From the NCBI GenBank assembly GCA_029778945.1, contig JAKPBN010000346.1, forward strand, positions 1 through 61,665: a DNA stretch of 61,665 nt, in the 5' to 3' direction. The position numbers and the translations under genes were made by a program. Shown piece after piece: positions 16,375 through 33,391 of this stretch. The notes below the pieces were generated by a model that ran no database searches, had not been told where the DNA came from, and saw nothing but the letters and a program-made list of their open reading frames with translations. The DNA comes from Spirochaetota bacterium (lineage in GTDB: Bacteria > Spirochaetota > Spirochaetia > Treponematales > Rectinemataceae). Numbering within the stretch: the first letter of the stretch is position 1; each line of letters begins with the position of its first letter.

Positions 16375-16403
16375 TTGACAAGCAAGGGGTATCGTGCTTT
16401 ACT
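16375..16403 (+). promoter_or_regulatory. Promoter of the SQ importer operon
   Basis: TTGACA (16375-16380), 17-nt spacer, TTTACT (16398-16403). The same -35/spacer/-10 design is used on the opposite strand before the SQ catabolic operon (31415-31387). The -10 lies within the operator palindrome. Confidence 0.7.
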
Positions 16404-16419
16404 TTCTTCGGGAAAGTAA
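16398..16419. promoter_or_regulatory. Predicted ROK-repressor operator (copy 1)
   Basis: TTTACTTTC, 5 nt, GAAAGTAA: arms TTACTTTC/GAAAGTAA are perfectly palindromic. The copy at 31371-31392 has TTTACTTAC, 5 nt, GAAAATAA. Fifteen of 17 arm positions match between the copies and the spacer has equal length. AT-rich palindromes are typical of ROK repressors such as NagC and XylR. Binding by the product of 32174-33391 is inferred. Confidence 0.68.
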
Positions 16420-16440
16420 TTATTCCCTCAAGGAGGCTCC

Positions 16441-17706
16441 ATGATCACCAGCAAGAATCGGCGCGCTGGACTGGCCATCGCCATCGCCCTCTTCGCCCTT
16501 CCCTTCTTCGCACCCGCCCAGGCACCCAAGGGCGAGATTGTCCTCAAATGGCCCTGCATCTGGGTCGGCAAGGACTCCAAGGCCCCCGCGATCGCCGAGA
16601 TCGTGGACAGCTTCAACAAGGCGAACGCCGGCAAGATCCGGGTCGAGATCGAGCCCCAGCCCGACTACAACGCCTATGAGCAGAAGGTCCGGACCTCCCT
16701 CATGGCCGGCGTGGCCCCCGGGGACATCTTTACCCTCAAGCTCAACGCCACCACCAAGGACTACTACAACAACAAGCTCCTGATGGACTTCTCCAAGGAC
16801 TTCAACGGAGCCTGGAAGGCCAGCTTTGACGCCGGCGCCGTGGCCCAGTCCACCGTGGACGGCAAGCTCAAGACCCTCCCCTACGAGACCGCCATCCTCC
16901 CCCTCTGGTACAACGGCGACCTCCTCAAGAAGGCCGGGGTCGACAAGGTCCCCGCGACAATGCCCGAACTCTGGGCAGCCATGGACAAGCTCAAGGCCGC
17001 CTCGATCATGCCCTCGAGCCAGATGACCGGCGACACCAACGCCTGGACCTCGATGATCTGGTTCTCCTGGTTCGCCGCCTCCTATGGCGGGCCCAAGGTC
17101 TGGGAAAAGCCCTTTACCGACAAGGCCTTTGTCGAGTCGGCCAAGCTCATGAAGAAGGTCTTTGACTCCTACACCACCCCCGACGCCGTGGGCGCCTCCG
17201 CCGGCATCTCCGGTGGCCACTTCCTCGCCGGCCGCACGGCCATCTTCTCCAACGGTCCCTGGTACGCCGGCCGCGCCGACCTCCGGGCCACGAGCTTCTT
17301 CCCCTCGGTCACCATCGCCCCCATGCCCCCCGCCGGCCCCAACAAGAACATCATCATCAGCCGCCTCCAGGCCAACATCGCCGCCGGGGAGACCAAGGAC
17401 AAGGCCAGGCACGAGGCCATCATCTCCTTCCTCAAGTTCCTGACCTCCAAGGAGAACTCCGCCAAGATGGCCCAGACCTCGGGCGCCATGATCGCGGTCA
17501 ACTCCGGCTATGTCCCCACGGACGGCCTCCAGAAGCAGTTCTACGCCTTTGTCGGCCAGAAGGGCGTCATCGGCGTAAACGACCTCGAAGCCGCCCTCGG
17601 ACCCGAGGCCACCCTCGAGTTCGGCCAGCAGCTCGGCGCCCTCATCCTCGGGAAGATCAGCCCCGAGCAGTTCTGCGCCCTGGTAGAGAAGAAGATCGAC
17701 CGCTAG
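16441..17706 (+). CDS. ABC sugar-binding protein, probably for sulfoquinovose or its glycosides
   Basis: Extracytoplasmic family-1 solute-binding protein, 421 aa, with a signal peptide ending near PFFAPAQA and a strong AAGGAGG site 6 nt before the ATG. The mature part shows the usual two-lobe pattern (EIVDSFNKANAGKIRVEIEP, then LPYETAILPLWYNGDLLKKAG). It is the first gene of the unit binding protein-permease-permease-GH31 sulfoquinovosidase, so the ligand is probably sulfoquinovosyl glycerol or SQ. This is inferred from gene order and the shared operator. No sulfonate-binding residues can be assigned by eye. A stem-loop after the stop probably raises its level over the permeases. Confidence 0.85.
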   Translation: MITSKNRRAGLAIAIALFALPFFAPAQAPKGEIVLKWPCIWVGKDSKAPAIAEIVDSFNKANAGKIRVEIEPQPDYNAYEQKVRTSLMAGVAPGDIFTLKLNATTKDYYNNKLLMDFSKDFNGAWKASFDAGAVAQSTVDGKLKTLPYETAILPLWYNGDLLKKAGVDKVPATMPELWAAMDKLKAASIMPSSQMTGDTNAWTSMIWFSWFAASYGGPKVWEKPFTDKAFVESAKLMKKVFDSYTTPDAVGASAGISGGHFLAGRTAIFSNGPWYAGRADLRATSFFPSVTIAPMPPAGPNKNIIISRLQANIAAGETKDKARHEAIISFLKFLTSKENSAKMAQTSGAMIAVNSGYVPTDGLQKQFYAFVGQKGVIGVNDLEAALGPEATLEFGQQLGALILGKISPEQFCALVEKKIDR

Positions 17707-17714
17707 CATTCCCA

Positions 17715-17745
17715 GGCCCTTCAGAGGATACTTCCCTGAAGGGCC
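17715..17745. other. Intercistronic stem-loop after the binding-protein gene
   Basis: GGCCCTTCAG (17715-17724) pairs perfectly with CTGAAGGGCC (17736-17745). No T-run follows, so it is more likely an mRNA-stabilising or attenuating structure than a full terminator. Confidence 0.65.
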
Positions 17746-17756
17746 GCATTATCATT

Positions 17757-18878: not shown

Positions 18879-19721
18879 ATGAAAACCAGCAAGAGCCCCC
18901 TCCGTGGCCTCGCCACGACGACCAAGTGGCTTGTCCTCCTCTTTTTCCTGGCCATCGCCCTCCTCCCCCTCCTCTGGCTGGTCCTGGGGTCCTTCAAGAC
19001 CAACCTGGAGCTCCAGACCTCGGCCTTCAGCCTCCCCTCGAGCCTCCACTTCGACAACTACGCCTCGGCGATAAAGACGGCAAGCCTGGCCACGCTCTTC
19101 CTCAACTCGGTGATCGTGGCCGCGGGGGCAGTCTTCCTCAACCTCGCGGTCTCGGCGATGGCGGGCTTTGCCCTCTCCCGGGAAAGCTTCAAGGGCCGGG
19201 AGCTGATCTTCACCATCGTGACCGCCGGGGTCCTCATACCCATCATCTCCTTCATGGTGCCCTATTTCTGGCTCATCACCCGGGCAGGCCTCTACGACAA
19301 GCTCCTCTCCCTCATCCTGGTCTATGCCGCGATCAACCTCCCGGTCTCGGTCTCCCTGATCACCTCCTTCATGAAGGCCATACCCAAGGAACTCGAGGAG
19401 GCGGCCATCATCGACGGCTGCGGCTTCAACCAGCGCTTCACCAAGGTGATCTTCCCCCTGGCCCGCTCGGGCCTGGCCACCGCGGGGACCTTCTGCTTTA
19501 TCTACGCCTGGAACGAGTTCATCATGGCCATGCTCTTCACCTCGAGCCTGGCCTCCCGGACCATCCAGCTGGGCATCCGCTTCTTTGCCACCCAGTTTGT
19601 CACGGACTACACGGGCATGTTCGCGGCCATTGTCCTTTCGATCATCCCCAGCATCCTTGTCTACATCTTCCTCCACAACAAGATCATCTCCGGCCTCACC
19701 GCCGGGGCCGTCAAGGGCTAG
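18879..19721 (+). CDS. ABC sugar transporter permease 2 (MalG/UgpE type)
   Basis: 280 aa, six membrane segments. The EAA loop is PKELEEAAIIDGCGFNQRF (about residues 168-186). The LVLGSFKTNLELQTSAFSLP stretch near the N-terminus is typical of MalG-type permeases. The stop lies 3 nt before the sulfoquinovosidase start, so import and glycoside cleavage are co-expressed. Confidence 0.9.
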   Translation: MKTSKSPLRGLATTTKWLVLLFFLAIALLPLLWLVLGSFKTNLELQTSAFSLPSSLHFDNYASAIKTASLATLFLNSVIVAAGAVFLNLAVSAMAGFALSRESFKGRELIFTIVTAGVLIPIISFMVPYFWLITRAGLYDKLLSLILVYAAINLPVSVSLITSFMKAIPKELEEAAIIDGCGFNQRFTKVIFPLARSGLATAGTFCFIYAWNEFIMAMLFTSSLASRTIQLGIRFFATQFVTDYTGMFAAIVLSIIPSILVYIFLHNKIISGLTAGAVKG

Positions 19722-19724: not shown

Positions 19725-21785
19725 ATGGAAGCGCGACTCGAGCTGGCCCAGGGCGGCTTCGACCTGGTCTTTGGGGCCTTTAGGATCGCCCATCGCGCCG
19801 AGCAGCCCTTCCTCCGGGCCGGCCGGGGCGAGGGCGTCTTTGAGATGCACCGGGGCAACTTCTCCATCCGGGAGGACCTGGACGAGCTCGTGGCCCTGAG
19901 GGACTTCGAGATCCTCTCCCAAGGCCCGGCCGCCATCCAGGTCCGCTTCCACCGCTCGGGCCTCTGGCCCATCCTCATGGAGGCCAAGCCCGAGGCCGGC
20001 CGCCTCGTCCTCTCCTTCCGGGCCGGACCCGGAGAAGAGAAGCCGAACCGTCTCCGCCTCAGCCTCCCCGCCTCGGCCACCGACCATGTCTACGGCTGCG
20101 GCGAGCAGTTCTCCCATTTCGACTTGCGGGGCAGGCACTTTCCCCTCTGGTCGAGCGAACAGGGGGTGGGGCGGAACAAGCTCACGGAGATCACCCGCCT
20201 GGCCGACGCCGATGACGGGGCCGGGGGCGACTACTACTGGACCTTCTACCCCCAGCCGAGCTTTGTCTCCAGCGCAGGCTATTGGTGCCACCTGGACACC
20301 ACGGCCTGGGCCGACTTCGACTTCCGCCATCCCGGGCGCCACGAGCTCTATGCCTGGGAAATCCCCTCCCGTCTCGTCGTTGGCCTAGGCGCTACGATGG
20401 CCGAGCTCGTCCAGGACCAGTCGGCCTTCCTGGGCCGCCAGCCCCTCCTCCCGGACTGGTGCCTGGGAGGGGTGATCCTGGGCATCCAGGGCGGCACCGA
20501 GGCCTGCCTCCAAAAGCTCGCCGCCGCCCGGGCCGCAGGGGTCCCCGTCACGGGGATCTGGGCCCAGGACTGGGAAGGCATCAACATGACAAGCTTTGGC
20601 CAGCGCCTGCGCTGGAACTGGGTCCACGACGAAGTCCGCTATCCAGGCCTCAAGGAAGCCATCCCGAGGCTCAAGGCCGAGGGCGTGCGCTTCCTGGGCT
20701 ATATCAACCCCTATGTGGGCAAGGACATGAGCCTCTTCAAGGAGGCCGCGGCGGCGGGCTACCTGGCCAAGACAGCCAATGGCGAGGACTACCTCGTGGA
20801 GTTCGGGGAATTCTACGCCGGGGTCGTCGACCTAACAAGGCCCGAGGCCTTCGCCTGGTACAAGGGCGTGATCAAGCGCAACCTGATCGGCTTTGGCCTC
20901 TCGGGCTGGATGGCGGACTTTGGGGAATACCTGCCCACGGACGCCGTCCTTTTTGACGGGACCCCGGCCCAGATCGCCCACAACGCCTGGCCCTCCCTCT
21001 GGGCCCGGTGCAACCGGGAGGCCGTGGACGAGGCCGTCGCCGAGGGCCTCGCCGCCAAGGACGATATCGTTTATTTCATGAGGGCCGGCGGGGCCGGCAG
21101 CCCCCGGGACTGCCCCCTCATGTGGGCCGGGGACCAGAACGTGGATTGGTCGACCGACGATGGCCTGGCTTCCGTGATACCGGCCGCCCTATCCCTGGCG
21201 ATGTCCGGCCACGGCCTCCACCACTCTGACCTAGGCGGCTACACCACCCTCTACGGGATGAAACGCACAAAGGAGCTTTTCCTGCGTTGGGCGGAACAGG
21301 CGGCCCTCAGCCCGGTGATGAGGAGCCATGAGGGCAACCGTCCGAAGGACAATTGGCAGTTTGACTCGGACGAGGAGACCCTCGCGGGTCTTGGGGCCAT
21401 GGGCCGCTTCCATAAGGCCCTCCTACCCTACCTGCAGGCCCTCGTGGCCCAAAACGCCCAGGCGGGCCTGCCCGTCCAGCGCCCCCTCTTCCTCCATCAC
21501 CCCGAGGACAGCCGGGCCTGGTCGATCCAGGACGAATATCTCCTGGGGGAGGACCTCCTCGTAGCCCCCATCCTGACTGAAGGCGCGAGGACGAGGAAGG
21601 TCCACCTGCCCGCGGGCTCCTGGGTCCACCTCTGGTCAGGTGCGGCCTACGAGGCTGCGGGCGCAGGAGGCCTGGACCTCGAGGTAGCCGCGCCCCTGGG
21701 AGAGCCCCCGGCCTTTGCCCGCCTAGGCTCGGCCTGGCTCGGCGACTTTAGGTCTGCGGTCGCCGCCGCGCGGACAAAGAGCTAG
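19725..21785 (+). CDS. yihQ: Sulfoquinovosidase, glycoside hydrolase family 31
   Basis: Hydrolyses alpha-sulfoquinovosides such as SQ-glycerol to free SQ. It is 686 aa with no signal peptide, so it acts in the cytoplasm after uptake. Recalled alignment with E. coli YihQ is close through the barrel. The nucleophile is Asp398 (WMADFGEYLP) and the acid/base is Asp470 (WAGDQNVDWS). The SQ-recognition residues of YihQ (Gln288, Arg301, Trp304, Tyr508) correspond to Gln281, Arg294, Trp297 and Tyr506, in AQDW, FGQRLRW and GGYTT. Ordinary GH31 alpha-glucosidases lack this set. It is the last gene of the importer operon and meets the catabolic operon tail to tail. Confidence 0.94.
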   Translation: MEARLELAQGGFDLVFGAFRIAHRAEQPFLRAGRGEGVFEMHRGNFSIREDLDELVALRDFEILSQGPAAIQVRFHRSGLWPILMEAKPEAGRLVLSFRAGPGEEKPNRLRLSLPASATDHVYGCGEQFSHFDLRGRHFPLWSSEQGVGRNKLTEITRLADADDGAGGDYYWTFYPQPSFVSSAGYWCHLDTTAWADFDFRHPGRHELYAWEIPSRLVVGLGATMAELVQDQSAFLGRQPLLPDWCLGGVILGIQGGTEACLQKLAAARAAGVPVTGIWAQDWEGINMTSFGQRLRWNWVHDEVRYPGLKEAIPRLKAEGVRFLGYINPYVGKDMSLFKEAAAAGYLAKTANGEDYLVEFGEFYAGVVDLTRPEAFAWYKGVIKRNLIGFGLSGWMADFGEYLPTDAVLFDGTPAQIAHNAWPSLWARCNREAVDEAVAEGLAAKDDIVYFMRAGGAGSPRDCPLMWAGDQNVDWSTDDGLASVIPAALSLAMSGHGLHHSDLGGYTTLYGMKRTKELFLRWAEQAALSPVMRSHEGNRPKDNWQFDSDEETLAGLGAMGRFHKALLPYLQALVAQNAQAGLPVQRPLFLHHPEDSRAWSIQDEYLLGEDLLVAPILTEGARTRKVHLPAGSWVHLWSGAAYEAAGAGGLDLEVAAPLGEPPAFARLGSAWLGDFRSAVAAARTKS

Positions 21786-21924: not shown

Positions 21925-21951
21925 AAAGGGCCGCCCTTAAGGCGGCCCTTT
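21925..21951. terminator. Bidirectional terminator between the two SQ operons
   Basis: Perfect 11-bp stem (AAAGGGCCGCC / GGCGGCCCTTT) with a CTTAA loop. A and T runs flank it on either side. It lies between the converging sulfoquinovosidase and DUF4867 genes and starts directly after the DUF4867 stop. Confidence 0.8.
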
Positions 21952-21952: not shown

Positions 21953-22675
21953 CTATCTGGTTATCGGCTTGACTTCTATGTTCTCCCCACGGATCCCCGG
22001 CCAGGCCCCGCGCTCGACGAGGATAGCCCGCTCGGGGTGGGCGATAAGCCACTTGTTTTTCATAAACAGGAGCCTTGCCTCGGGGTCTCTGGGCCCGGTC
22101 CCGCCCTGGCCCCGGCCCAGGTCCCGGGCGGCCGTGAGCTCCTTCTGGGTGAGGGCCTCGTTGGTGCCTCGGGGAAGGACGATGATGGACTTAAAGCCCC
22201 GGGGATGGACCTTGCAGGGAGAAAAATGGAGGACCTCGGGCCAGAGCTCGATCGCCGCCCCGGCGGGGAGGTAATAGGCCTCGACCCTTCGGGCCTCGTA
22301 GGAGAGGTCAGGCGCAATGTCCCGCTTTTTCCCCAGGAGGAGGACGAGGTCAGTCACCGCGATGTCGACCTCGGTCGACTTGTGGTATTCAAGGCCGTTG
22401 AGCCGGGAATTGGGACCGTTGCAGTAGCCCACCTGGATGGGGCTGCCCCCAAAGAGGATCCCCAGGGGAAGCGCGGCCGGATGGGCCTCGAGTTCAGGCA
22501 AGGAGGCGACGTAGCGGTTGGCGTCGGGCTCGATGCCCGTGATGCGGTCCGCCAGCTCGAGGAGGCCCGGGAGGCCCTCCAGGTCCAGGACCCGGCCGTA
22601 GGCCGCAAAGGCCGGGTCGTCGAGGGTCCTGATGGCAAGGCCTGGGTTGGCCTTCCTGATGCTGTCTATGCTCAT
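21953..22675 (-). CDS. DUF4867 family protein, predicted cupin, SQ island member
   Basis: 240 aa. The start at 22675 is chosen; an ATG at 22693 in the same frame is possible. It resembles DUF4867, with a cupin-like core: LNGLEYHKSTEVDIAVTDLV (His and Glu suited to metal binding), then AYYLPAGAAIELWPEVLHFS and a late VLPRGTNEA. The pattern recalls sugar-acid isomerases of the KduI type. It is the last gene of the SQ catabolic operon, 48 nt after the DASS carrier gene. A role as mutarotase, isomerase or repair enzyme for a sulfo-sugar is possible but not shown. No function is assigned. Confidence 0.75.
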   Translation of the reverse strand: MSIDSIRKANPGLAIRTLDDPAFAAYGRVLDLEGLPGLLELADRITGIEPDANRYVASLPELEAHPAALPLGILFGGSPIQVGYCNGPNSRLNGLEYHKSTEVDIAVTDLVLLLGKKRDIAPDLSYEARRVEAYYLPAGAAIELWPEVLHFSPCKVHPRGFKSIIVLPRGTNEALTQKELTAARDLGRGQGGTGPRDPEARLLFMKNKWLIAHPERAILVERGAWPGIRGENIEVKPITR

Positions 22676-22723
22676 GACCTTACTGGCCTCCATTGAACGC
22701 TAAAGTTATGCGATCCTAAATAT

Positions 22724-24184
22724 CTAGAACAATCCCTTAAGGCTCCCCACGACCCTGAAGACCGCCGCGAGGATAAGCGCCGCGATGGGCGCAAAGACAA
22801 GGCCGGCCTTGGCCATGTCCGAGATCCGGAAATAGCCCGTGGAATAGGGCACGACATTGACCGGGGAGGTGGTCACGAGGATGACGGCCAGGTTGGCCGC
22901 AAAGCCCGCGGCCAGGGCCAGGCCCGTGGCGCCTCCGCCCAGGCTTGGGCCCAGGGCCAGGACCAGAGGGACAATGATGGTGCCCGTCAGGGTATTGGAC
23001 GAGAGGGCGATCTTGACGACAAGGACTCCCAAGACCACGAGGACCAGGCGGGCGAAAAGGGGCAGGCCGCCGATGCCCCCAAAGACTATGGCCGAGAGCC
23101 AGCCCGCGGCCCCGGTCTCATAGAGGGTCGTGCCCAGGCCTATGCCCGCGGCGATCAGGATAATGCCCGACCAGTCCATCTCCCGCTCGATCTCCTTCCA
23201 GCGGAAGGAGGTCGAGCCCGGGAGAAAGAGGAGGACGACCGCGCCCAGGGCTCCCATCGAGATGGGGACTTTGAAGTGGGCAAGCTTTTCCACCAGGGGA
23301 GAGAAGACCCAGACGAGGATCGTCAGGGCAAAGACCACGAGGACGGCCTTCTCGTCCCGGGACATCCTGTCCAGGTCCCGGAAGGCCCGGGACAGCTCCG
23401 CCCCGCTTTTCTTGAGTCGCCGGGACTCGGGCGGGAAAAACAGCAGTATGACAAGCCAGGCGGCGGGCACGAGGAGGATGGCCGCGGGGATGCCATAGAC
23501 CATCCAGTCGGTAAAGCTGAGCTCGAAGTGGGCGATCTGGGAGAGGAAGCGGACTACCACCGGATTGGAGCCCGAGCCGGCGGGGGTGCCCACGGCGCCC
23601 ACGAGGGCCCCCCAGGCCACGGCCATCATCAGGGCGGCGCCAAAGCGGCTCTTGCCCGGCTCCTCGCCCTCGTCCTTGAGCAGGGCCAGGGCCAGGGGCA
23701 TGAGCATGGCCGAGGCGGCCAGGGCCGTGATCCACATGGAGAGGACGGCCGAGGCCGCGAGGAAGCCAAAGACTACCGCGCGCGTGGAGCCCCCGGTGAG
23801 GGAGAGGACAAAGAGGGAAAGCCGCTTGCCAAGGCCCGAGCGCACGATGCAGGCGGCCAGGGCGAGGACTCCGATAAAGAAGACTACCGTGTCGTCCCCA
23901 AAGCCGGTCTTCACGATAGCCCGATAGTCCCCCGCGCCCACCAGGGCAAGGCCGAGCATCGCGAGGAGGCCTGTCACATGAAAGGGCAGGGCCTCGGTGA
24001 TCCACAGGACGAGGGCCGCCGCGAGGACGGCCAGGGCGCGCTGGCCCCTTGGCTCGAGGATGGCCCCCCGGACCTGGCGGAGGCCCTCGGGCAGGGGCAG
24101 AAGCAGAAAGATGGCGAGGACCAGGGCCGCCCCGGCCAGGGAGGCCAGGCGAAAGGCCGCCCGGGGGGGCTTAGGCCCGGCCAT
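22724..24184 (-). CDS. DASS-family (SLC13) anion carrier, probable sulfoacetate exporter
   Basis: 486 aa with about twelve membrane segments. It has the two DASS clamshell motifs: GTPAGSGSNP in the first half (a variant of SNT) and ALSSNTLTGTI in the second. Family members move dicarboxylates, citrate or sulfate-like dianions with sodium or by exchange. The gene overlaps the CoA-ligase alpha gene by 14 nt, at the end of a pathway whose predicted product is the dianion-like sulfoacetate. Export of sulfoacetate is therefore the likely task, by inference. Import of a sulfonate cannot be ruled out. Confidence 0.82.
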   Translation of the reverse strand: MAGPKPPRAAFRLASLAGAALVLAIFLLLPLPEGLRQVRGAILEPRGQRALAVLAAALVLWITEALPFHVTGLLAMLGLALVGAGDYRAIVKTGFGDDTVVFFIGVLALAACIVRSGLGKRLSLFVLSLTGGSTRAVVFGFLAASAVLSMWITALAASAMLMPLALALLKDEGEEPGKSRFGAALMMAVAWGALVGAVGTPAGSGSNPVVVRFLSQIAHFELSFTDWMVYGIPAAILLVPAAWLVILLFFPPESRRLKKSGAELSRAFRDLDRMSRDEKAVLVVFALTILVWVFSPLVEKLAHFKVPISMGALGAVVLLFLPGSTSFRWKEIEREMDWSGIILIAAGIGLGTTLYETGAAGWLSAIVFGGIGGLPLFARLVLVVLGVLVVKIALSSNTLTGTIIVPLVLALGPSLGGGATGLALAAGFAANLAVILVTTSPVNVVPYSTGYFRISDMAKAGLVFAPIAALILAAVFRVVGSLKGLF

Positions 24185-25073
24185 GGCCGGCCCGACCCAG
24201 GGCCTCGAGGAGGAGCTCGCCAGCCTGGCTGGGCCTTCCGGCCACTTGGGCTCCCGCGGCCCTGAGCGCCGCGGCCTTGCCCTCCACCGTGCCCTTGCCC
24301 CCGGTGACTATGGCTCCGGCATGGCCCATGCGCCTGCCCTTGGGGGCGTTGCGTCCCCCCAGGAAGGCCACGAGGGGCTTGGTAAAGCGCCCATCGCGCA
24401 TCGCCTCGGCCACCTCCTCCTCCATGGTCCCGCCCAGCTCGCCGATGATCACCACCGCGTCGGTGCCATCGTCGGCCTGGAAGTCAGGGAGCATCTCCGC
24501 GAAGCGAGTGCCCGGCACGGGATCGCCCCCCACGCCTATGAGGCTGGACACCCCAAAGCCGGCCCTGACCACCATGGCCGTGACTTCGTTGGTCAGGGAG
24601 CCCGAGCGGGTCATCACCCCGATCCTGCCGGGCTTGTAGACCCGGTCGATCCAGAAGGGGAACATGCCCATCATGGCCCGGCCGGGGCTGATCACGCCGG
24701 AGGTGTTGCCCCCGACAACCCTGGCCCCGCAGGACCGGGCCGCGGCCCGGATCTCCAGGGCCTCCTGGAGGGGTATGCCGTCGGCTATGGTGACTATCTT
24801 CCGAATCCCCGCGTCCAGGGCCTCGTAGACGGCGTCCTTGGTAAAGCGGGGCGGCACAAAGAGCATGGCCGCGTCGGCTGGAACCATGTCGACGGCCCGG
24901 CGCACCGTGTGGAAGACGCTCACGCCCTCGACGGCCTGGCCCTCCTTGCCCGGGGTCACCCCGGCCACTACCGTCGTGCCCAGGTCGATCATGTGCTTGG
25001 TCCAGAAGGAGCCTTCTCCGCCGGTGATCCCCTGGACGAGGACCCGGTCACTCCGATCGATAAAGACGCTCAT
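24171..25073 (-). CDS. ADP-forming acyl-CoA ligase alpha subunit, probable sulfoacetate-CoA ligase
   Basis: Homologue of succinyl-CoA synthetase alpha (SucD), 300 aa. It has an N-terminal CoA-binding Rossmann domain (VQGITGGEGSFWTKHMIDLG, then VTPGKEG) and the phospho-His at residue 251 in RRMGHAGAIV. It overlaps the beta gene by 4 nt (ATGA) and the carrier gene by 14 nt. Placement after an acylating aldehyde dehydrogenase rather than TCA-cycle genes indicates it works on the acyl-CoA made there. Predicted reaction: sulfoacetyl-CoA + ADP + Pi to sulfoacetate + CoA + ATP, as for SqwKL of the known sulfo-transketolase variant. Substrate inferred. Confidence 0.85.
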   Translation of the reverse strand: MSVFIDRSDRVLVQGITGGEGSFWTKHMIDLGTTVVAGVTPGKEGQAVEGVSVFHTVRRAVDMVPADAAMLFVPPRFTKDAVYEALDAGIRKIVTIADGIPLQEALEIRAAARSCGARVVGGNTSGVISPGRAMMGMFPFWIDRVYKPGRIGVMTRSGSLTNEVTAMVVRAGFGVSSLIGVGGDPVPGTRFAEMLPDFQADDGTDAVVIIGELGGTMEEEVAEAMRDGRFTKPLVAFLGGRNAPKGRRMGHAGAIVTGGKGTVEGKAAALRAAGAQVAGRPSQAGELLLEALGRAGHGRA

Positions 25074-26203: not shown

Positions 26204-26210
26204 GGCAGCC

Positions 26211-27659
26211 TCACTTGCCGTACTTGGCCCAGAGGCCGCCAAAGATCTCCTCATCCGAGGGGCGGCTCATGGGGAGGGGAAGGGAAAGCCAGGTGACGTT
26301 GATAAAGTGCTTCCAGTGGATGTTCTCGCTCGTGATGTTGCCGCCCCAGGTCCCGCAGCCCAGGGTGACCGTCGAGGGCATGCCGTTGGCAAAGGTGCCC
26401 CCATTGCCCGAGGCCATGCCCTGGCGGACCATGATGCGGCTCGAGCGCATGGTTTCGCCCATCCTGCGGATATACTCGTCCTTGGAGCTGAAGAGCCCCG
26501 AGGAATGGCCGGTGCCGCAGGCGTCGGTGATCAGGACCACGGCCTCGAGGCCAAGCTCGAAGCTCGGGCACTTCCAGAGGGCCAGGACGGGGGAGATCTT
26601 CTCCTGGGCCCACTTTTCCGGGGCAGGTCCTCCCTTGCGGGGAAGCTCGGCCTCGACCATGAGGATCTTGGTGCCCGCGGGCACGGCTATTCCAGCGCCC
26701 TCGGCAATGACCAGGGCCGTGCGGGCTATGACCTTGGGGTTCAGAGCCTCGTGGCCATCTTTGCCCACGGGCCAGACCCAGGCGCGGAGCCTCGCCTTTT
26801 CCTCGGGCGTGCAGAGGTAGGCTCCCCTCTCTCTCATGGCGGCGACAAAGGCCCCGTAGACGGCCTCGTGAGCCACGACGGAATTCTCGCTCGAGCAGCT
26901 TGTGGCGTTGTCAAAAGCCTTGGAGACCGAGATCTTCGCGGCCGCGTCCACGGGGTCGGCGTCCTCGGCAAGAAGCTGGACGGCGTTGCCCGGCCCCACC
27001 CCGTAGGCCGGGGTGCCCGAGGAATAGGCGGCTTTGACCATGGGCCCGCCCCCGGTGGCCACCACGAGGTCGACCTGGCGCATGAGCTCTCCCGTGCGGT
27101 CGATAGAGGGCTCCTCGATGCACTGGACGAGGTCCTCGGGGGCGCCAACCTGCCTCAATGCGGCCCGCATAAAGTCACAGGCGATCTTCGAGGCGCCCTT
27201 GGCCTTCGGATGGGGTGCAAAGATGACGGCGTTGCGCCCCTTGAGGATCGAAAGGCCATTGGAGGAAGGGGTAGCCGTGGGATTGGTCACGGGGGCAAGT
27301 GCCCCAATGACGCCCACGGGCTTGGCGAATTTCATGAGGCCCTTCGCCTCGTCGTAGTCGATAAGGCCGACGGTCTTGGCCGTCCTGATGTCCCTCAGGA
27401 CCCCGAGGACCTTGTTCTTGTGCTTGGTGAGCTTGTCCTCGTAGACCCCCATGCCCGTCTCGTCGACCGCGGCCCGGGCCATCACCTGGATGTTCTCGTC
27501 CTTGTAGACAGCCCAGCCCACGGCCAGGCATACCTCGTCGACCCTGGCCTGGTCCCAGGTGGCGGCGACAGCCTGGGCCGCCCGGGCCCGCTCGACCATA
27601 CCGGCCACGACCCGGAAGTCCTCGGTGTCCCGGGCCTCGACCTGCTTGCCTGCGCTCAT
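26211..27659 (-). CDS. sqwD: CoA-acylating aldehyde dehydrogenase, probable sulfoacetaldehyde dehydrogenase
   Basis: 482 aa of the AdhE N-domain/EutE/SauS type. The catalytic Cys is at residue 255 (DNATSCSSENS). A GxGxG-like nucleotide loop is near GVGPGNAVQLL and a GKPVGVIGALAPVTNPT-like segment is near 112-128. The predicted step is sulfoacetaldehyde + CoA + NAD(P)+ to sulfoacetyl-CoA. Ethanolamine- or propanediol-type enzymes are the alternative, but there are no microcompartment shell genes, and the neighbours are a sulfo-transketolase set and a CoA ligase. The ATG lies inside the stop of the isomerase gene (4-nt overlap). The gene symbol follows the published sulfo-transketolase variant from memory. 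Confidence 0.85.
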   Translation of the reverse strand: MSAGKQVEARDTEDFRVVAGMVERARAAQAVAATWDQARVDEVCLAVGWAVYKDENIQVMARAAVDETGMGVYEDKLTKHKNKVLGVLRDIRTAKTVGLIDYDEAKGLMKFAKPVGVIGALAPVTNPTATPSSNGLSILKGRNAVIFAPHPKAKGASKIACDFMRAALRQVGAPEDLVQCIEEPSIDRTGELMRQVDLVVATGGGPMVKAAYSSGTPAYGVGPGNAVQLLAEDADPVDAAAKISVSKAFDNATSCSSENSVVAHEAVYGAFVAAMRERGAYLCTPEEKARLRAWVWPVGKDGHEALNPKVIARTALVIAEGAGIAVPAGTKILMVEAELPRKGGPAPEKWAQEKISPVLALWKCPSFELGLEAVVLITDACGTGHSSGLFSSKDEYIRRMGETMRSSRIMVRQGMASGNGGTFANGMPSTVTLGCGTWGGNITSENIHWKHFINVTWLSLPLPMSRPSDEEIFGGLWAKYGK

Positions 27660-28129
27660 TTGAAGACCTCGTTCTCGTGCTCCTGGACCTTGCCAAAGGC
27701 ATTGGTCAGGAAGTCCTTCTTGAACTCCATCTTCTGGGTAAACTGCATGGAAAGCCAGGCGTCCACAATCTCCTTGCCCACAAAAGGCGCGGTGATCCAG
27801 CCGCCCATCGTGATCACGTTGGCGTTGTTGACTATCTTTGCCCTCTCCCCGGAGAAGACGTCGTCCACGACGCAGGCATAGACGCCCTTGTGCTTGTTGG
27901 CCACGATGGCCATGCCCTGGCCGGTGCCGCAGATGAGGATGCCCTTGTCGGCTTCTCCTTTCTGGATGGCCCGGGCGACAAGGGGAGCCTGCTCGAAATA
28001 GGGCTTGGGGTGGTCGGCGTCGGGGATGCCAAAGTCGATCACCTCGATATCGGCCTTGGCCTTGAGGTGGGCGACGAGCTCCTGCTTGAGGGGAAAGCCC
28101 GAGAGGTCGGAGGCGATGGCGATCTTCAT
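27656..28129 (-). CDS. sqwI: RpiB/LacAB-type isomerase, probable 4-deoxy-4-sulfoerythrose isomerase
   Basis: 157 aa RpiB fold: MKIAIASDLSGFPLK start, catalytic Cys67 in GILICGTGQGM, and NNANVITMGG near residue 101. The usual SDHAG at the start is SDLSGF, so the His of ordinary ribose-5-phosphate isomerase is missing, which fits a changed substrate. It lies 2 nt from the transketolase C-terminal gene and 4 nt overlapped with the aldehyde dehydrogenase gene. In the sulfo-transketolase pathway this enzyme converts 4-deoxy-4-sulfoerythrose to the erythrulose so that transketolase can act again. Function inferred from context. Confidence 0.87.
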   Translation of the reverse strand: MKIAIASDLSGFPLKQELVAHLKAKADIEVIDFGIPDADHPKPYFEQAPLVARAIQKGEADKGILICGTGQGMAIVANKHKGVYACVVDDVFSGERAKIVNNANVITMGGWITAPFVGKEIVDAWLSMQFTQKMEFKKDFLTNAFGKVQEHENEVFK

Positions 28130-28131: not shown

Positions 28132-29085
28132 TTACTTCCTTTCCGCGGCCAGGGCCTTGACCCGGTCGGCGATGGCCTCGGCCGTGAGGCCAAAGCGCTG
28201 CTGGAGATAGTCCTGGGTCCCGACCTCTCCAAAGAGGCCCTGGACGCCGATCCGGGCGAGGCGGGGATGGACCGAGGAGGGGGGCAGCTCGGCCAGGAGC
28301 TCGGCCACGGCCGAGCCAAGGCCGCCTTCAGCCTGGGCGTTCTCCGCGGTCACGACGATACCGGTCTTGCGGGCCTGGGCCAGGATAAGCTCGGTGTCGA
28401 GGGGGCGGAGGGACAGGGCGTCGATCACCCCGACCTCGATGCCGGCGGCCTTGAGTAGCTCGGCGGCCTTAAGTGCCGCCGGGACCATCACGGCCCCCAG
28501 GGCCACGATCACGGCGTCCTTGCCCTCCCGGAGCAGCTTGGCCTTCCCGAGCTGGAAGGCTTCTCCTTCGGGATAGAGGGGCTCGATAGCCTTGCGGTGG
28601 AGGCGCATATAGGCCGGGCCGTCAAAGGCGGCAAGCAGGCGGACGTAGGCCGCGAGGGACACCGGGTCCGAGGGCTCGACGATGGGGAGGCCCGGGACGG
28701 TGCGCATGATGCCCAGGTCCTCGAAGGGCATGTGGGTCCCGCCGTTAAAGGCCGCGGAGACTCCCGGGTCGGTGCCCACAAGCCTCACGGGCAGCTGGGC
28801 ATAGGCGCAGGAGACAAAGAACTGGTCAAAGGCCCGGCGGCTGGCAAAGCAGCCAAAGGTCGCCGCAAAGGGCCGCTTGCCCTCGGCGGCCAGGCCCGCC
28901 GCGATGCCCACCATGTTGGCCTCGGCCACTCCGGCGTTGACAAAGCGCTCGGGGTAGGCGGCCTTGAAGGGAGTCGTGCCCGTGGCCTTCATAAGGTCGG
29001 CCTCCACCACCATGACGCGATCGTCGCTTTTCGCGAGGTCTATGAGGGTCTCGACGTAGACCGCCCGCATTTCCTTGTTTGCCAT
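28132..29085 (-). CDS. Transketolase, C-terminal subunit (split enzyme)
   Basis: 317 aa with the pyrimidine-binding and C-terminal domains of transketolase: RVMVVEADLMKATGTTPFK, the Glu-bearing NAGVAEANMVGIAAGLA (Glu contacts the TPP ring), and a final domain with VVTAENAQAEGGLGSAVAELL. With the N-terminal subunit encoded just upstream it forms one active transketolase. In the SQ island it should move C2 units from 6-deoxy-6-sulfofructose and then from sulfoerythrulose to glyceraldehyde-3-phosphate, giving xylulose-5-phosphate twice. Corresponds to half of SqwGH. Confidence 0.88.
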   Translation of the reverse strand: MANKEMRAVYVETLIDLAKSDDRVMVVEADLMKATGTTPFKAAYPERFVNAGVAEANMVGIAAGLAAEGKRPFAATFGCFASRRAFDQFFVSCAYAQLPVRLVGTDPGVSAAFNGGTHMPFEDLGIMRTVPGLPIVEPSDPVSLAAYVRLLAAFDGPAYMRLHRKAIEPLYPEGEAFQLGKAKLLREGKDAVIVALGAVMVPAALKAAELLKAAGIEVGVIDALSLRPLDTELILAQARKTGIVVTAENAQAEGGLGSAVAELLAELPPSSVHPRLARIGVQGLFGEVGTQDYLQQRFGLTAEAIADRVKALAAERK

Positions 29086-29133: not shown

Positions 29134-30000
29134 CTAGCCCAGCTCGGCGACAGCCTTCTTGGCGGTCTCGTAGTCGAAGCTCATGTTGTGGCTGCCCACC
29201 TGGCCCTCGCAGAAGGCCGCGCCCTTGCCCTTGACCGTGTCGAGGACAATCATGGTCGGCTTGCCAGCGCCATCGCCAGCTCCGCTGGCGGCGCCAGCGA
29301 CCGCGCGGGCCTTGGCGCGCTCGATCGCCGCGTCTATGGCCTCCACGTCATGGCCGGGGACACGCTCGGCGGCCCAGCCAAAGGCCGCCCACTTGGCCAC
29401 AAAGTCCGAGCCGGCCTGGTCGAGGTTCATGATCTCAGCGGTGGTGCCGTCGATCTGCATTTTATTGTTGTCCGTAAAGGCTATCAGCCTGTCGAGCCTG
29501 TTGTGGGCGGCGAACATCGCCGACTCCCAGACCTGGCCCTCGTCGGACTCCCCGTCGCCGATGATGGCGAAGGTGTAGGAGTCCCGCTTGTCCAGGCGGT
29601 TGGCGAAGGCTATGCCGCAGGCCGCGGAGATGCCCTGGCCCAGGGAGCCCGTGGTCATGTCGATCCCCGGGGTCTTGTTGCGGTCGCAGTGGGAGGGCAG
29701 TTTGGTGCCGCCCTTGTTGAGGGTGTGGAGCCATTCCTCGGGGAAAAAGCCCTTATAGGCCAGGGTCGAGTAGAGGGCCGGGCCCGCGTGGCCCTTGGAG
29801 AGGACCAGGCGGTCCCGGGCGGGGTCACGGGGATTCCGGGGGTCAAAGCGCAGCTGGCGCTCGTAGAGGACCGCGAGGACCTCGACAATGGAGAGGGCCC
29901 CGCCTATGTGGCCGACCCCCAGGAAGCCTATCGTGTCTATTGTCCGCTTGCGGATCTCCTTGGCTGTGGCCTCGACGGCCGCCTTGTCACTGGCCTTCAT
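29134..30000 (-). CDS. Transketolase, N-terminal TPP-binding subunit (split enzyme)
   Basis: 288 aa. The TPP/Mg motif is complete: FAIIGDGESDEGQVWE to AFTDNNK, the GDG-to-NN pattern near residues 143-172. The DRLVLSKGHAGPALYSTLA and SLGQGISAACGIAFA segments are typical of transketolase. It is followed by the C-terminal subunit gene after 48 nt. Split transketolases also serve normal pentose metabolism, but the flanking isomerase genes place this one in SQ breakdown. Binding of the sulfonate is not visible from the sequence. Confidence 0.88.
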   Translation of the reverse strand: MKASDKAAVEATAKEIRKRTIDTIGFLGVGHIGGALSIVEVLAVLYERQLRFDPRNPRDPARDRLVLSKGHAGPALYSTLAYKGFFPEEWLHTLNKGGTKLPSHCDRNKTPGIDMTTGSLGQGISAACGIAFANRLDKRDSYTFAIIGDGESDEGQVWESAMFAAHNRLDRLIAFTDNNKMQIDGTTAEIMNLDQAGSDFVAKWAAFGWAAERVPGHDVEAIDAAIERAKARAVAGAASGAGDGAGKPTMIVLDTVKGKGAAFCEGQVGSHNMSFDYETAKKAVAELG

Positions 30001-31354: not shown

Positions 31355-31370
31355 GGTCGACTCCTTAGGG

Positions 31371-31392
31371 TTATTTTCTTAATGTAAGTAAA
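31371..31392. promoter_or_regulatory. Predicted ROK-repressor operator (copy 2)
   Basis: Read on the minus strand: TTTACTTAC, 5 nt, GAAAATAA, a near-perfect palindrome. It matches the operator at 16398-16419 in 15 of 17 arm positions. It covers the -10 (31392-31387) and the start point of the SQ catabolic operon, the expected position for repression. Confidence 0.68.
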
Positions 31393-31415
31393 TACCAAGA
31401 CCGCTTTTTCGTCAA
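31387..31415 (-). promoter_or_regulatory. Promoter of the SQ catabolic operon
   Basis: TTGACG (31415-31410), 17-nt spacer, TTTACT (31392-31387). This is the same design as the importer promoter at 16375-16403. Confidence 0.7.
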
Positions 31416-31581
31416 CCAGAAAGCGCAGGGCCGGGCGAACCTGAATAAGAGCATCCTTGGGAAAAAATGCCGCCCAGACAAGGCAGCTAGGGCACGAGGA
31501 TGGCATTTTGCCGAAAGTGCTATTTCTTTATATTTTTGATATATGCTATTTACTATCTTGAGGCGCCCAAGCCCCACCACC

Positions 31582-32154
31582 ATGCAATTAGTTCTCCTCG
31601 TCCTGCCATTAGTCCTGGCAGCCCAAACGGAGCCCCACATGCCAGAAACCCTCATCGATGATTTTTCCGCGGCCCGATCTGCCTTAGCCACCGAATGGGA
31701 AGGATTTACTGACCGGGTCATGGGGGGAAAGTCCGAAATGACCGTGGGGATAAGAAGCGAAGCCGACCGGCCCTATCTGTCCATGGCCGGGACCGTGAGC
31801 CTCGCGAACAACGGAGGCTTTATCCAAGCCCGCCTACCCCTCGCAGCTGAAGGCAGGCGCTACCTTGACGCCTCGAAACACTCCGGCATCAAGTTGATGG
31901 TCCGCGGAAGCGGTGAGGATTACTATGTATTCCTTCGCACGACGGGGAATGTTTTGCCCTGGTCCTTCTTTATGGCCCCAGTTCCGGTCTCAGGCGAATG
32001 GCAGGAAGTCCTGATTCCCTGGAGCCAATTCAAGAAAGGCGACTTTGGCTCCCTGTTCGCCCTCAATCCCGCCAAGCTGACAAGCGTGGCCGTAGTGGCC
32101 TATAAGAAGGCCTTCTCTGCCTCGCTCGACCTGGCGCGTATCTCATTCTATTGA
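31582..32154 (+). CDS. Exported CIA30-domain protein
   Basis: 190 aa from the ATG at 31582, which begins a signal peptide (MQLVLLVLPLVLAAQ). An in-frame ATG at 31543 is possible but lies in the AT-rich promoter region. The rest is one CIA30 domain, a galactose-binding jelly-roll fold: LIDDFSAARSALATEWEGFT, DRVMGGKSEM, NNGGFIQARLPL and IPWSQFKKGDFG. Members bind glycans or act as assembly factors. It sits between the SQ catabolic operon and the ROK gene. A TTTACTATC half-site like the operator lies just upstream (31549-31557), so it may belong to the regulon. Role unknown. Confidence 0.75.
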   Translation: MQLVLLVLPLVLAAQTEPHMPETLIDDFSAARSALATEWEGFTDRVMGGKSEMTVGIRSEADRPYLSMAGTVSLANNGGFIQARLPLAAEGRRYLDASKHSGIKLMVRGSGEDYYVFLRTTGNVLPWSFFMAPVPVSGEWQEVLIPWSQFKKGDFGSLFALNPAKLTSVAVVAYKKAFSASLDLARISFY

Positions 32155-32173
32155 GAGCCCCAGCCTCGGCGAG

Positions 32174-33391
32174 CTAACCTAGGAAGGCATCCACGACGAG
32201 GTCGGCGGCGCCGCGCTGGGCCAGCTCGGCGTCGTAGGCCCGGCCGATAAACCGGGGCTGGGCCTCGTCAAAATTCGAGGGGGCCGCCGCCAGGACCTCC
32301 CCTACCCTCCGGGCCAACTCCGTGGCCAGGCTCGCCGACCAGGCGACGAACAGGAAGGAGGAGGGGCGAAAGAGGCGGGAGACGGTCTGGACGGCCGAGG
32401 CGAGATAGCGGGCGGCCAGGGTGAGGGCCTCTTCCCCGCTCAGGGACCTGCCCTGGCTGTCGGTCACGCAGGACTCACAGCTCGGCAGGAGGTCCCCCAG
32501 GCCCTCGAAAAGCCAGCGCCCCTCCCCCAGGTCGCCCTTGTCCAGGGAGGTCATGTAAGCCTCGAGGCAGCCCGAGGCCCCGCAGACACAGGGGGGGCCA
32601 TCATAGTCGATGGATATATGGCCCATCTCGATCGTGGTGCCGCGAGGGGAGAGAAACACCTTGCCCCCGTCCACAAAGGCCCCGTTGACCCCGGCCCGGA
32701 GCAGGAACATGAACATGGAATCCTCGTCCCCCAGGCCTCCGTAGCGGAACTGGCTCTGGGCGATGATCGAGCAGTTGTTGTGGATCGAGACGGGTAGGCC
32801 CAGGCGGGCCTCAAGGCGGGCGGCTATGGGAAAGTCCTTCATGCCGGGGATGCGGGGATAGTAGACCACTTCCCGGACCCCCACGGAAACCTGGCCGGGG
32901 GCCCCTAGGCCCAGGCCCAGGATGGACTCCAGGGCCAGGTGGAGGGAGGCGATGGCCTCCTCCACGAGGCGGGCGATAAGGTCGGTGACGGCCTCGGCAT
33001 CCTCCTTGCGCGTCAGGGGGACCATCGTGGAATAGACCGAGTTGCCCTGGAAGTCAAAGACCCCCAAGGAGACCCGCTCTACCCAAAATTCGACGCCCAG
33101 GGAGTAGAAGGTCTCTTTCCGGGCCACATAGGCCTGGGGGCGGCGGCCCTTGCGCTCCTGCCTGACCTCCTCCTCGCCCTGGGCCGGCAGGGGCCGCTCG
33201 ACGGCCATGATATAGCCCGCCTCCTCGAGGTAGGAGAAGATGCGAAAGATCGTCGGGGGCTTGAGGCCCGTGGCCAGGACCACCTCGGACTGGGAGAGGC
33301 CCCGCTCCCGGGAGGAGTGGATAAGCCGGAGGACGATTTTTTCATTGCGCTGGCGGACATCGGCTGCGCGGAGAGGACTGACTGCGGCCAT
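32174..33391 (-). CDS. ROK-family transcriptional repressor of the SQ island
   Basis: 405 aa. The N-terminal winged helix-turn-helix covers about residues 10-65 (NEKIVLRLIHSSRERGLSQS, VVLATGLKPPTIFRIFSYLE). A ROK sugar-kinase fold follows, with GLGLGAPGQVS and the zinc-binding motif CVCGASGCLEAY after GHISIDYDG. The kinase catalytic Asp region reads IHNNCS rather than the DNDAN seen in active kinases, which fits a sensor that does not phosphorylate. It lies at the end of the SQ island, and both SQ promoters carry the same palindrome, so it is the likely repressor. The inducer may be SQ or sulfofructose (inferred). Confidence 0.87.
   Translation of the reverse strand: MAAVSPLRAADVRQRNEKIVLRLIHSSRERGLSQSEVVLATGLKPPTIFRIFSYLEEAGYIMAVERPLPAQGEEEVRQERKGRRPQAYVARKETFYSLGVEFWVERVSLGVFDFQGNSVYSTMVPLTRKEDAEAVTDLIARLVEEAIASLHLALESILGLGLGAPGQVSVGVREVVYYPRIPGMKDFPIAARLEARLGLPVSIHNNCSIIAQSQFRYGGLGDEDSMFMFLLRAGVNGAFVDGGKVFLSPRGTTIEMGHISIDYDGPPCVCGASGCLEAYMTSLDKGDLGEGRWLFEGLGDLLPSCESCVTDSQGRSLSGEEALTLAARYLASAVQTVSRLFRPSSFLFVAWSASLATELARRVGEVLAAAPSNFDEAQPRFIGRAYDAELAQRGAADLVVDAFLG

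What the first reader, a model, noticed from the sequence alone, without database searches (positions are those of the whole stretch)
16375..33391. Complete sulfo-transketolase island for sulfoquinovose degradation to sulfoacetate
All needed activities sit together: ABC importer, GH31 sulfoquinovosidase, fucose-isomerase-like SQ isomerase, split transketolase, RpiB-like isomerase lacking the usual SDH motif, acylating aldehyde dehydrogenase, ADP-forming CoA ligase, DASS carrier and ROK repressor. The gene order fits the published sulfo-transketolase variant (SqwGH, SqwI, SqwD, SqwKL). Energy logic: two C2 transfers to glyceraldehyde-3-phosphate give xylulose-5-phosphate twice, the C2-sulfonate remainder yields NAD(P)H and ATP, and sulfoacetate leaves the cell. 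The combination with an ABC importer, a ROK switch, a DUF4867 protein and a CIA30 protein may be a lineage-specific form.
Basis: partly seen in the sequence, partly recalled or inferred. Interest (0 to 1): 0.93.

Follow-up and report, generated by a model that had tools for sequence, protein, structure and literature searches.

The report
Spirochaete plant-sulfosugar degradation gene cluster
An uncultured spirochaete carries a nearly complete, apparently co-regulated gene set for eating sulfoquinovose, the sulfur sugar of plant membranes, and excreting sulfoacetate; the pathway is already known, but some relatives seem to have swapped its first enzyme for an unrelated one.

Summary
Window 16441-33391 encodes an ABC importer (binding protein, two permeases, no ATPase found), a YihQ-type sulfoquinovosidase with all six checked active-site residues, a FucI/AraA-fold sugar isomerase, split transketolase, an RpiB-like isomerase lacking two RpiB histidines, an acylating aldehyde dehydrogenase, ADP-forming CoA ligase, DASS carrier, DUF4867 and a ROK regulator. 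This fits the published sulfo-transketolase pathway, sulfoacetate variant, already reported from spirochaetes: a new member of a known kind. CIA30 is not a conserved part; DUF4867 is common in such clusters.

Seen here and not met in the papers searched: (1) a palindrome, TTACTTnCnnnnnGnAAGTAA, lies before both operons and, at one mismatch or fewer, nowhere else in the 4.07 Mb draft genome; similar sites recur in many, not all, related clusters. (2) In 22 genomes with this SqwI clade the exit module is D-K-L-DASS (12), ADH-TauE (7) or unresolved (3). (3) Their entry isomerase differs: 9 have the window's type, 7 distant homologues, and 6 have a KduI/IolB-family cupin instead, a candidate unrelated sulfoquinovose isomerase. 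YihS-type isomerases were not searched for. All functions are inferred from sequence.

The parts
16399..16419 (.). Palindromic operator 1 (TTACTTTCTTCGGGAAAGTAA), 21 bases before the SBP start codon
   Evidence: 0 mismatches to TTACTTNCNNNNNGNAAGTAA; with 31371 the only site of 1 mismatch or fewer in the 4.07 Mb draft; window has 3 matches at up to 3 mismatches, 0.25 expected
16441..17706 (+). ABC importer, solute-binding protein
   Evidence: Pfam SBP_bac_8 101 bits; 76-77% identical to the homologue in L034
17897..18868 (+). ABC importer permease 1 (true start may lie at MKSRRN, downstream of the listed GTG)
   Evidence: Pfam BPD_transp_1
18879..19721 (+). ABC importer permease 2
   Evidence: Pfam BPD_transp_1
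19725..21785 (+). YihQ-type GH31 sulfoquinovosidase
   Evidence: NF007746 898.8 bits, cut-off 553; PDB 5aed YihQ E 3.6e-238; YihQ Q288, R301, W304, D405, D472, Y508 all conserved
21925..21951 (.). Inverted repeat between the convergent operons, terminator-like
   Evidence: AAAGGGCCGC / GCGGCCCTTT arms
21953..22693 (-). DUF4867 cupin (SqvB/SftX); mutarotase role proposed in print, not proven
   Evidence: PF16161 217.6 bits; literature passages
22724..24184 (-). DASS-family anion carrier, candidate sulfoacetate exporter
   Evidence: TIGR00785 239.3 bits, cut-off 198.6; beside D-K-L in 12 of 12 SqwI+ genomes that have D-K-L
24171..25073 (-). CoA ligase alpha subunit (SucD-like; SqwL or SqwK); the GHAGA stretch of the phospho-histidine is present (motif recalled)
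   Evidence: Pfam CoA_binding, Ligase_CoA; NF004230 329.5 bits, just under its cut-off of 336; translation
25070..26254 (-). CoA ligase beta subunit (ATP-grasp, SucC-like; SqwK or SqwL); likely start about 26203
   Evidence: ATP-grasp_2 186 bits
26211..27659 (-). SqwD: CoA-acylating sulfoacetaldehyde dehydrogenase
   Evidence: Best NCBIfam hit NF047625 SauS 487 bits, below its 600 cut-off; start
27656..28129 (-). SqwI: RpiB-like 4-deoxy-4-sulfoerythrose isomerase
   Evidence: PF02502 137.6 bits; L and V at the RpiB His10 and His99 positions, Cys kept
28132..29085 (-). SqwH: transketolase C-terminal subunit
   Evidence: Pfam; A and D where the nearest solved protein 6yaj has S and H
29134..30000 (-). 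SqwG: transketolase N-terminal subunit
   Evidence: PF00456 169.7 bits
30038..31354 (-). SQ isomerase (SqvD type)
   Evidence: Only NCBIfam hit NF048012 SftI, 192.7 bits, cut-off 700; AlphaFold2 pLDDT 83.9; arabinose isomerase fold, TM to query 0.84, then fucose isomerase 0.75-0.78
31371..31391 (.). Palindromic operator 2 (TTATTTTCTTAATGTAAGTAA), 16 bases before the SQ isomerase start
   Evidence: 1 mismatch
32174..33391 (-). ROK-family regulator, presumed reader of the two operators
   Evidence: PF00480 99.4 bits; MarR-type HTH match 22.2 bits, under its cut-off of 27

Best explanation
The cluster encodes uptake and sulfo-transketolase catabolism of sulfoquinovose (SQ) and its glycosides, ending in sulfoacetate. 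The ABC importer (with an ATPase from elsewhere) brings in SQ or SQ-glycerol; the YihQ-type SQase frees SQ; the FucI/AraA-fold isomerase makes sulfofructose; SqwGH moves a C2 unit to glyceraldehyde-3-phosphate, leaving 4-deoxy-4-sulfoerythrose; SqwI isomerises that to sulfoerythrulose; SqwGH cuts a second time, giving sulfoacetaldehyde; SqwD oxidises it to sulfoacetyl-CoA and SqwKL recovers ATP and sulfoacetate; DASS exports it. The ROK protein is the likely repressor acting at the two palindromes. Shown from sequence: family membership, gene order, active-site residues, the two-site palindrome. Inferred: substrates, direction, export, ROK-operator pairing.
For: Family hits for all genes. Six YihQ residues conserved (their roles are recalled, except Asp405, called catalytic in a passage of PMC11968277 seen). 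SqwH has A and D where the split transketolase 6yaj has S and H, as PMC11659671 section 3.4 reports for SF transketolases; R, A, D, R are all present in 26 of 36 SqwH rows. SqwI has V or I at the RpiB His99 position in 33 of 33 rows and His at the His10 position in none, while this genome's RpiB L119 and L122 have both histidines (L120 is cut before the first). The isomerase model folds like arabinose and fucose isomerases. Xsc: best match 306.6 bits, cut-off 676.4. Palindrome: both sites lie in this cluster and no other place in the draft has 1 mismatch or fewer; exact copies occur in 7 of 21 SqwI+ genomes against 6 of 362 others (Fisher p 7e-7), the reversed control in 1 of 21 against 7 of 362 (p 0.37). 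DASS accompanies D-K-L in 12 of 12 genomes, TauE accompanies the ADH tail in 7 of 7.
Against: The isomerase and the dehydrogenase score below the NCBIfam equivalog cut-offs of SftI (192.7 of 700) and SauS (487 of 600). No ABC ATPase gene found in the cluster. CoA ligase and acylating dehydrogenase are reversible; the direction rests on their sharing an operon with SqwGHI. A TauE-like gene (25%) lies near the SQase of one D-K-L genome, G377. Of the 7 SqwI+ genomes with an exact palindrome, G342 has it away from the sqw genes, and several sqw loci have no site of 14 of 18 or better (see Tried and rejected). The genome is a draft (504 contigs, contamination 6.55). The experimentally studied Sqw proteins were not on hand for comparison. 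No expression or enzyme data.
Confidence: 0.87

Rival explanations
1. The D-K-L-DASS part runs backwards: DASS imports sulfoacetate, KL and D reduce it to sulfoacetaldehyde, as SauCD and SauS do in Bilophila (PMC12890257, passage).
For: SauS is the best NCBIfam match of SqwD; SqwD relatives occur without detected sqwGHI homologues in many loci from outside Spirochaetota, where a reductive role is plausible.
Against: D-K-L-DASS is in one compact operon with SqwGHI and an SQ isomerase; no Xsc over cut-off in the draft genome. Isethionate sulfite-lyase was not searched for.
Confidence: 0.06
2. The cluster serves another sulfosugar or an ordinary sugar, and the SQ label is carried over by homology.
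For: The isomerase is far from the curated SftI model; related clusters carry other isomerases, so substrates might differ between lineages.
Against: The SQase keeps all six checked YihQ residues and is 64-66% identical to those in L034, L053 and L058; SqwH and SqwI carry the sulfo-type substitutions.
Confidence: 0.06
3. Sulfoacetaldehyde is mainly reduced to isethionate, as in Clostridium sp. MSTE9 and rumen Sphaerochaetaceae.
For: Seven related SqwI+ genomes have an ADH-TauE tail that fits this.
Against: No Fe-ADH or TauE match among the cluster proteins scanned; in 19 resolved genomes the two tails replace one another. A reductase elsewhere in the genome was not searched for.
Confidence: 0.04

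Closest known systems
Sulfo-transketolase pathway, sulfoacetate variant (SqwD, SqwKL; Chu et al. 2023, Acholeplasma; known here only through PMC12890257 and PMC11659671, the paper itself is not held)
   Same: SQ isomerase, split transketolase SqwGH, RpiB-like SqwI, acylating dehydrogenase, ADP-forming CoA ligase; already listed for Spirochaetes
   Different: Here a YihQ-type SQase, an ABC importer, a DASS carrier and a ROK regulator are seen; how far the published cluster has these could not be checked, nor its sequences compared
Sulfo-transketolase pathway, isethionate variant (Clostridium sp. MSTE9, Faecalicatena, rumen Sphaerochaetaceae; PMC11659671, PMC13219744)
   Same: SqwGHI core and SQ isomerase; ABC importer and DUF4867 are named among the genes of the rumen clusters
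   Different: Ends with SqwF reductase and SqwE exporter instead of D-K-L-DASS
Sulfo-transaldolase pathway (Priestia, Eubacterium rectale; PMC11968277)
   Same: SQ isomerase superfamily, DUF4867 (SftX), GH31 SQase
   Different: Transaldolase instead of transketolase; C3 sulfonate product; no transaldolase match among the cluster proteins scanned
Sulfoacetate use in Bilophila (SauS, SauCD; passage of PMC12890257)
   Same: Same dehydrogenase and ligase chemistry
   Different: Described there as running in the reductive direction towards isethionate

Membership tests
Sulfo-TK pathway, sulfoacetate variant | Split transketolase with the sulfo-type residues (R-A-..-D-R instead of R-S-..-H-R) | tested here: met
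   R, A, D, R present; the middle F of RAFDR was not placed reliably
Sulfo-TK pathway, sulfoacetate variant | RpiB-like 4-deoxy-4-sulfoerythrose isomerase next to SqwGH | tested here: met
   27656-28129, both RpiB histidines replaced; substrate not testable
Sulfo-TK pathway, sulfoacetate variant | FucI-superfamily SQ isomerase in the cluster | tested here: met
   Fold and remote family match; 21 of 392 phylum genomes have it at 46% identity or more, next matches 31% or less
Sulfo-TK pathway, sulfoacetate variant | CoA-acylating dehydrogenase plus ADP-forming CoA ligase in place of SqwF/SqwE | tested here: met
   no Fe-ADH or TauE match among the cluster proteins scanned
Sulfo-TK pathway, sulfoacetate variant | Enzyme activities and sulfoacetate production | not testable with these tools
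   Needs proteins or cultures
Sulfo-TK pathway, sulfoacetate variant | Close sequence relation to the studied MSTE9 or Acholeplasma proteins | not tested
   Their sequences and the paper were not on hand
NCBIfam NF048012 SftI equivalog | Score at or above 700 bits | tested here: not met
   192.7 bits: same superfamily, different clade; not filed as SftI
NCBIfam NF047625 SauS equivalog | Score at or above 600 bits | tested here: not met
   487.2 bits: best match, but not filed as SauS
YihQ-type sulfoquinovosidase (GH31) | YihQ sulfonate-site and catalytic residues (roles recalled) | tested here: met
   Q288, R301, W304, D405, D472, Y508 all identical
Xsc (sulfoacetaldehyde acetyltransferase) route, considered | TIGR03457 over cut-off in the genome | tested here: not met
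   Best 306.6 of 676.4 bits in the draft

The most novel reading that the evidence does not exclude
Spirochaete sulfo-transketolase clusters are assembled from exchangeable entry and exit cassettes around a fixed SqwGHI core, several of them behind one palindromic operator, and in six of 22 SqwI+ genomes the SQ isomerase has been replaced by an unrelated KduI/IolB-family cupin: a third, non-homologous kind of SQ isomerase besides YihS and SqvD/SftI. KduI and IolB act on six-carbon acids with a C6 carboxylate (recalled), which SQ mimics with its C6 sulfonate. Probability lowered from 0.60 to 0.55 on recheck, because YihS-type isomerases were not searched for in those six genomes and the cupin's neighbours in two of them (G344, G074) are not pathway genes.
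Probability: 0.55. Interest if true: 0.58.

Novelty: new member of a known kind. Interest (0 to 1): 0.42.

Why it matters
SQ is described as one of the most abundant organosulfur compounds (PMC12890257 abstract), and C2 sulfonates from it feed sulfide-producing anaerobes (PMC13219744). The cluster adds an uncultured spirochaete to the predicted sulfoacetate producers and gives a DNA signature (the palindrome) by which SQ regulons can be sought in other genomes. The relatives point to a testable enzyme discovery, a cupin SQ isomerase. A survey that demands a known SQ isomerase for calling a sulfo-TK cluster, as PMC13372026 does (passage), could miss such genomes.

Tried and rejected
CIA30 as a conserved member: not between ROK and the SQ isomerase in L034, L035, L053, L062; a 43% homologue lies within 5 kb of the SQase in L141, G377, unexplained. 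A 260-aa minus-strand ORF conserved before sqwG in L054/L056/L058 (no Pfam match) was first taken for a new isomerase; G+C by codon position pointed to the opposite strand, a KduI-like gene. AlphaFold2 of that KduI-like protein with 3 close sequences failed (pLDDT 35.8) and was not used; its family rests on Pfam (55-57 bits, cut-off 23.9) and on the HxH...E...H pattern seen against 9kd0 (ligand roles recalled). In note 4 (also one search's plan) I wrote or implied that SqwI has Asn at the RpiB His99 place; rechecking against one search showed V/I, corrected. My first gene picker often preferred antisense ORFs and was replaced by a codon-usage one. A ROK operator at its own promoter (33462, 12 of 18 matches) is too weak to claim.

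Operator misses: at the threshold of 14 of 18 no site in L054 (best 11) and L063 (best 13), nor in L133, L134, L135, L138, L142, L145, L146, L147's tail genes aside, L148, L150, L151, L152 (some of these are short or hold no sqwG). So the clusters of the cupin genomes G245, G320 and G379 show no such site; G342, G344 and G074 do. In one search, single-base shuffles reached 14 in one of five runs for L034 and for L035.

Papers: PMC13219744 section 16 read whole; PMC11659671 section 3.3 (part 1 of 2), section 3.4, Introduction (part 1 of 2); PMC12890257 section 3.4; abstracts and outlines; passages of PMC12890257, PMC9594981, PMC11968277, PMC13372026. Chu et al. 2023 and Liu X. et al. 2023 are not held and were not read. 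That I found no report of a KduI/IolB-type SQ isomerase or of a ROK operator for SQ rests on search listings only in an open-licence library.


Full report
WHAT IS THERE. The window is one 61,665-base contig (C344) of a 4.07 Mb draft genome in 504 contigs. ORF and family searches confirm each gene of the finding. Plus strand: SBP, two permeases, SQase. Minus strand: ROK, then SQ isomerase, SqwG, SqwH, SqwI, SqwD, the two ligase subunits, DASS, DUF4867, nearly without gaps (SqwI/SqwD overlap by ATGA). The two operons converge on an inverted repeat at 21925-21951. CIA30 (31543-32154, plus) lies between ROK and the isomerase.

TESTS OF SPECIFICITY. SQase: 898.8 bits to NF007746, and YihQ Q288, R301, W304, D405, D472, Y508 are all kept. 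SqwH: the nearest solved protein is the split transketolase 6yaj; where that has S and H the window has A and D, the change that PMC11659671 (section 3.4) reports for SF transketolases. R, A, D and R are all present in 26 of 36 SqwH rows (matches with at least 75% coverage); of the other ten, L057 is truncated, L043 has G for A, L044/L046/L047/L048 have A for D (L048 also cut at R), L086/L088 have G for D, and L099/L102 look like other enzymes. SqwI: in 33 of 33 rows the RpiB His99 position is V or I, and the His10 position is L (18), K or R (14) or A (1); the cysteine is kept (one unread residue in L072); own-genome RpiB L119 and L122 have both histidines, L120 is cut before the first (register checked). 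A chemical reading (inference; the role of His99 in ring opening is recalled): 4-deoxy-4-sulfoerythrose has no O4 and cannot close to a furanose, so a ring-opening histidine would be needless. SQ isomerase: no PDB relative by sequence at E up to 1, but the model (pLDDT 83.9) matches L-arabinose isomerases (4r1o, TM to query 0.84) and then fucose isomerases (0.75-0.78); E280, D304 and H412/H413 are invariant in 11 aligned homologues, the first two at the spacing I recall for FucI metal ligands. Scores are below the curated cut-offs of SftI and SauS, so those names are not claimed. Xsc is not found over cut-off.

CONSERVATION. The SQ isomerase at 46% identity or more is in 21 of 392 phylum genomes, followed by a gap to 31%. 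The window's order recurs in L035 and in L053 and L062. Of the 56 SqwD loci, homologues of SqwG, H or I at 38% or more outside Spirochaetota appear in L082, L086, L088 and, for SqwH alone, L099 (43%); many contigs are short. L053 and L062 have a different ABC importer (27-31% permeases).

OPERATOR. Before the two operons lie TTACTTTCTTCGGGAAAGTAA (16399) and TTATTTTCTTAATGTAAGTAA (31371). With up to 3 mismatches the window has 3 matches against 0.25 expected, no shuffle of 100 reaching 3 (the third, 7502, has 3 mismatches and is probably chance). In the whole draft, sites with 0 or 1 mismatch are these two only; two more have 2 mismatches, and the control pattern has 3 sites at up to 2 mismatches, so only the 0-1 mismatch sites count. 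Many relatives show sites of 14-17 of 18 matches whose first base lies mostly 35-45 bases (range about 25-52) before a start of the SQ isomerase, SBP, SQase or SqwG; others show none (listed in Tried and rejected). Dinucleotide shuffles have any such site in 0 to 2 of 60 for four loci, and 281 kb of control loci hold 2. In 383 genomes exact sites occur in 7 of 21 SqwI+ genomes and 6 of 362 others (p 7e-7); the reversed pattern gives 1 of 21 and 7 of 362 (p 0.37). Of those 7, six have the site at their sqw, SBP or SQase genes; G342's lies elsewhere (C13:197912), and G308 has a second one elsewhere (C5:15260). Genomes are related and so not independent. The pattern was drawn from the window sites and then tested on relatives. 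That ROK reads it is inferred.

EXIT CASSETTES. Among the 22 SqwI+ genomes (56% identity or more), SqwI goes with D-K-L-DASS in 12 (G000, G371, G362, G245, G320, G342, G379, G130, G377, G293, G334, G074), with ADH and TauE in 7 (G308, G357, G325, G343, G386, G240, G194), and is unresolved in 3 (G344: contig end; G044: short contig with a DASS; G374: neither in the stretch taken). This supports DASS as the sulfoacetate carrier; G377 also has a TauE-like gene near its SQase.

ENTRY CASSETTES. The same 22 split into 9 with the window-type isomerase (59% identity or more: G000, G371, G362, G308, G357, G325, G343, G194, G374), 7 with more distant NF048012 homologues (132-366 bits: G386, G240, G044, G130, G377, G293, G334; that of G044 is on another contig than its SqwI), and 6 with a KduI/IolB cupin (G245, G320, G342, G344, G379, G074). 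The cupin occurs in 6 of 392 genomes, exactly these (E up to 1e-15). In five of the six no NF048012 match at E 1e-8 exists; G245 has three weak ones (45-65 bits) on other contigs. All six have a YihQ-type SQase over cut-off. The gene sits directly before sqwG in three genomes (G245 = L054/L134, G320 = L056/L135, G342 = L058), before sqwI in G379, where sqwGH was not detected in the 20 kb taken, and on another contig than sqwI in G344 and G074. In G344 it follows an alpha/beta hydrolase gene and in G074 a POR - acetate kinase - PTA row, not pathway genes; but in G344 it has its own operator-like site (14 of 18) starting 35 bases before the ATG, where 2 of 60 shuffles of that 20 kb have any such site. 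DUF4867 is kept beside the cupin in G245, G320 and G342, so the cupin is not a DUF4867 stand-in there. The odds 1.5e-8 and 1.3e-5 treat genomes as independent, which they are not, and the second was framed after seeing the pattern. YihS-type isomerases were not searched for, so the absence of a known SQ isomerase is shown for the SftI superfamily only.

LITERATURE AND NOVELTY. The pathway, its sulfoacetate variant, and its presence in Spirochaetes are in print (PMC12890257 section 3.4); Sphaerochaetaceae with the isethionate variant transcribed it in rumen microcosms (PMC13219744 section 16); DUF4867 is a known companion (PMC9594981, PMC11968277 passages). The window is thus a new member of a known kind. 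The operator and the cupin entry enzyme were not met in the listings (open-licence library only).

VERDICT. Observation confirmed, interpretation supported at the level of sequence, novelty moderate and located mainly in the regulon signature and in the relatives.

Noticed in passing
L058:6925-7677, L054:6912-7664, L056:784-1536, L136:12393-13160, L138:11736-12476: KduI/IolB-family cupin in 6 of 392 phylum genomes, all SqwI+ and without a pathway NF048012 homologue, in three of them directly before sqwG; candidate non-homologous SQ isomerase (YihS type not excluded).
   Followed up: partly
L085:4962-6344, L072:5995-7389, L103:1718-3115, L088:16774-18135: Divergent isomerases (22-27% to the window's) of the SftI superfamily in sqwGHI-D-K-L loci of several spirochaetes and a Lentisphaerae MAG; substrate may be SQ or another sulfosugar.
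   Followed up: partly
L063:3122-6649 beside sqwG at 7454: A sqwGHI-D-K-L-DASS operon with TRAP transporter genes (DctP, DctM) and a GldA-like dehydrogenase on the opposite strand; no SQ isomerase or SQase homologue detected in the 14.6 kb held. Possibly a different sulfonate as substrate.
   Followed up: no
G000:C146:6-1934 (L151): A second YihQ-type GH31 (723 bits, over cut-off; 47% to the window's) at a contig end in the same genome.
   Followed up: no
window 31543-32154: CIA30 protein with an N-terminal hydrophobic stretch, divergent from the SQ isomerase and sharing its operator-bearing intergenic region; not seen there in four relatives, though G377 has a 43% homologue within 5 kb of its SQase.
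   Followed up: partly
G308:C5:15260-15280 and G342:C13:197912-197932: Exact copies of the palindrome away from the sqw genes in two SqwI+ genomes: possible further regulon members or chance.
   Followed up: no
L133 (G379): Cupin gene followed directly by sqwI-D-K-L-DASS, with sqwGH not detected in the 20 kb taken.
   Followed up: no
L054:15023-18884: Beside the cupin-type cluster of G245, an ABC importer of another kind, with its own ATPase (ABC_tran 113.9 bits), next to the SQase.
   Followed up: partly
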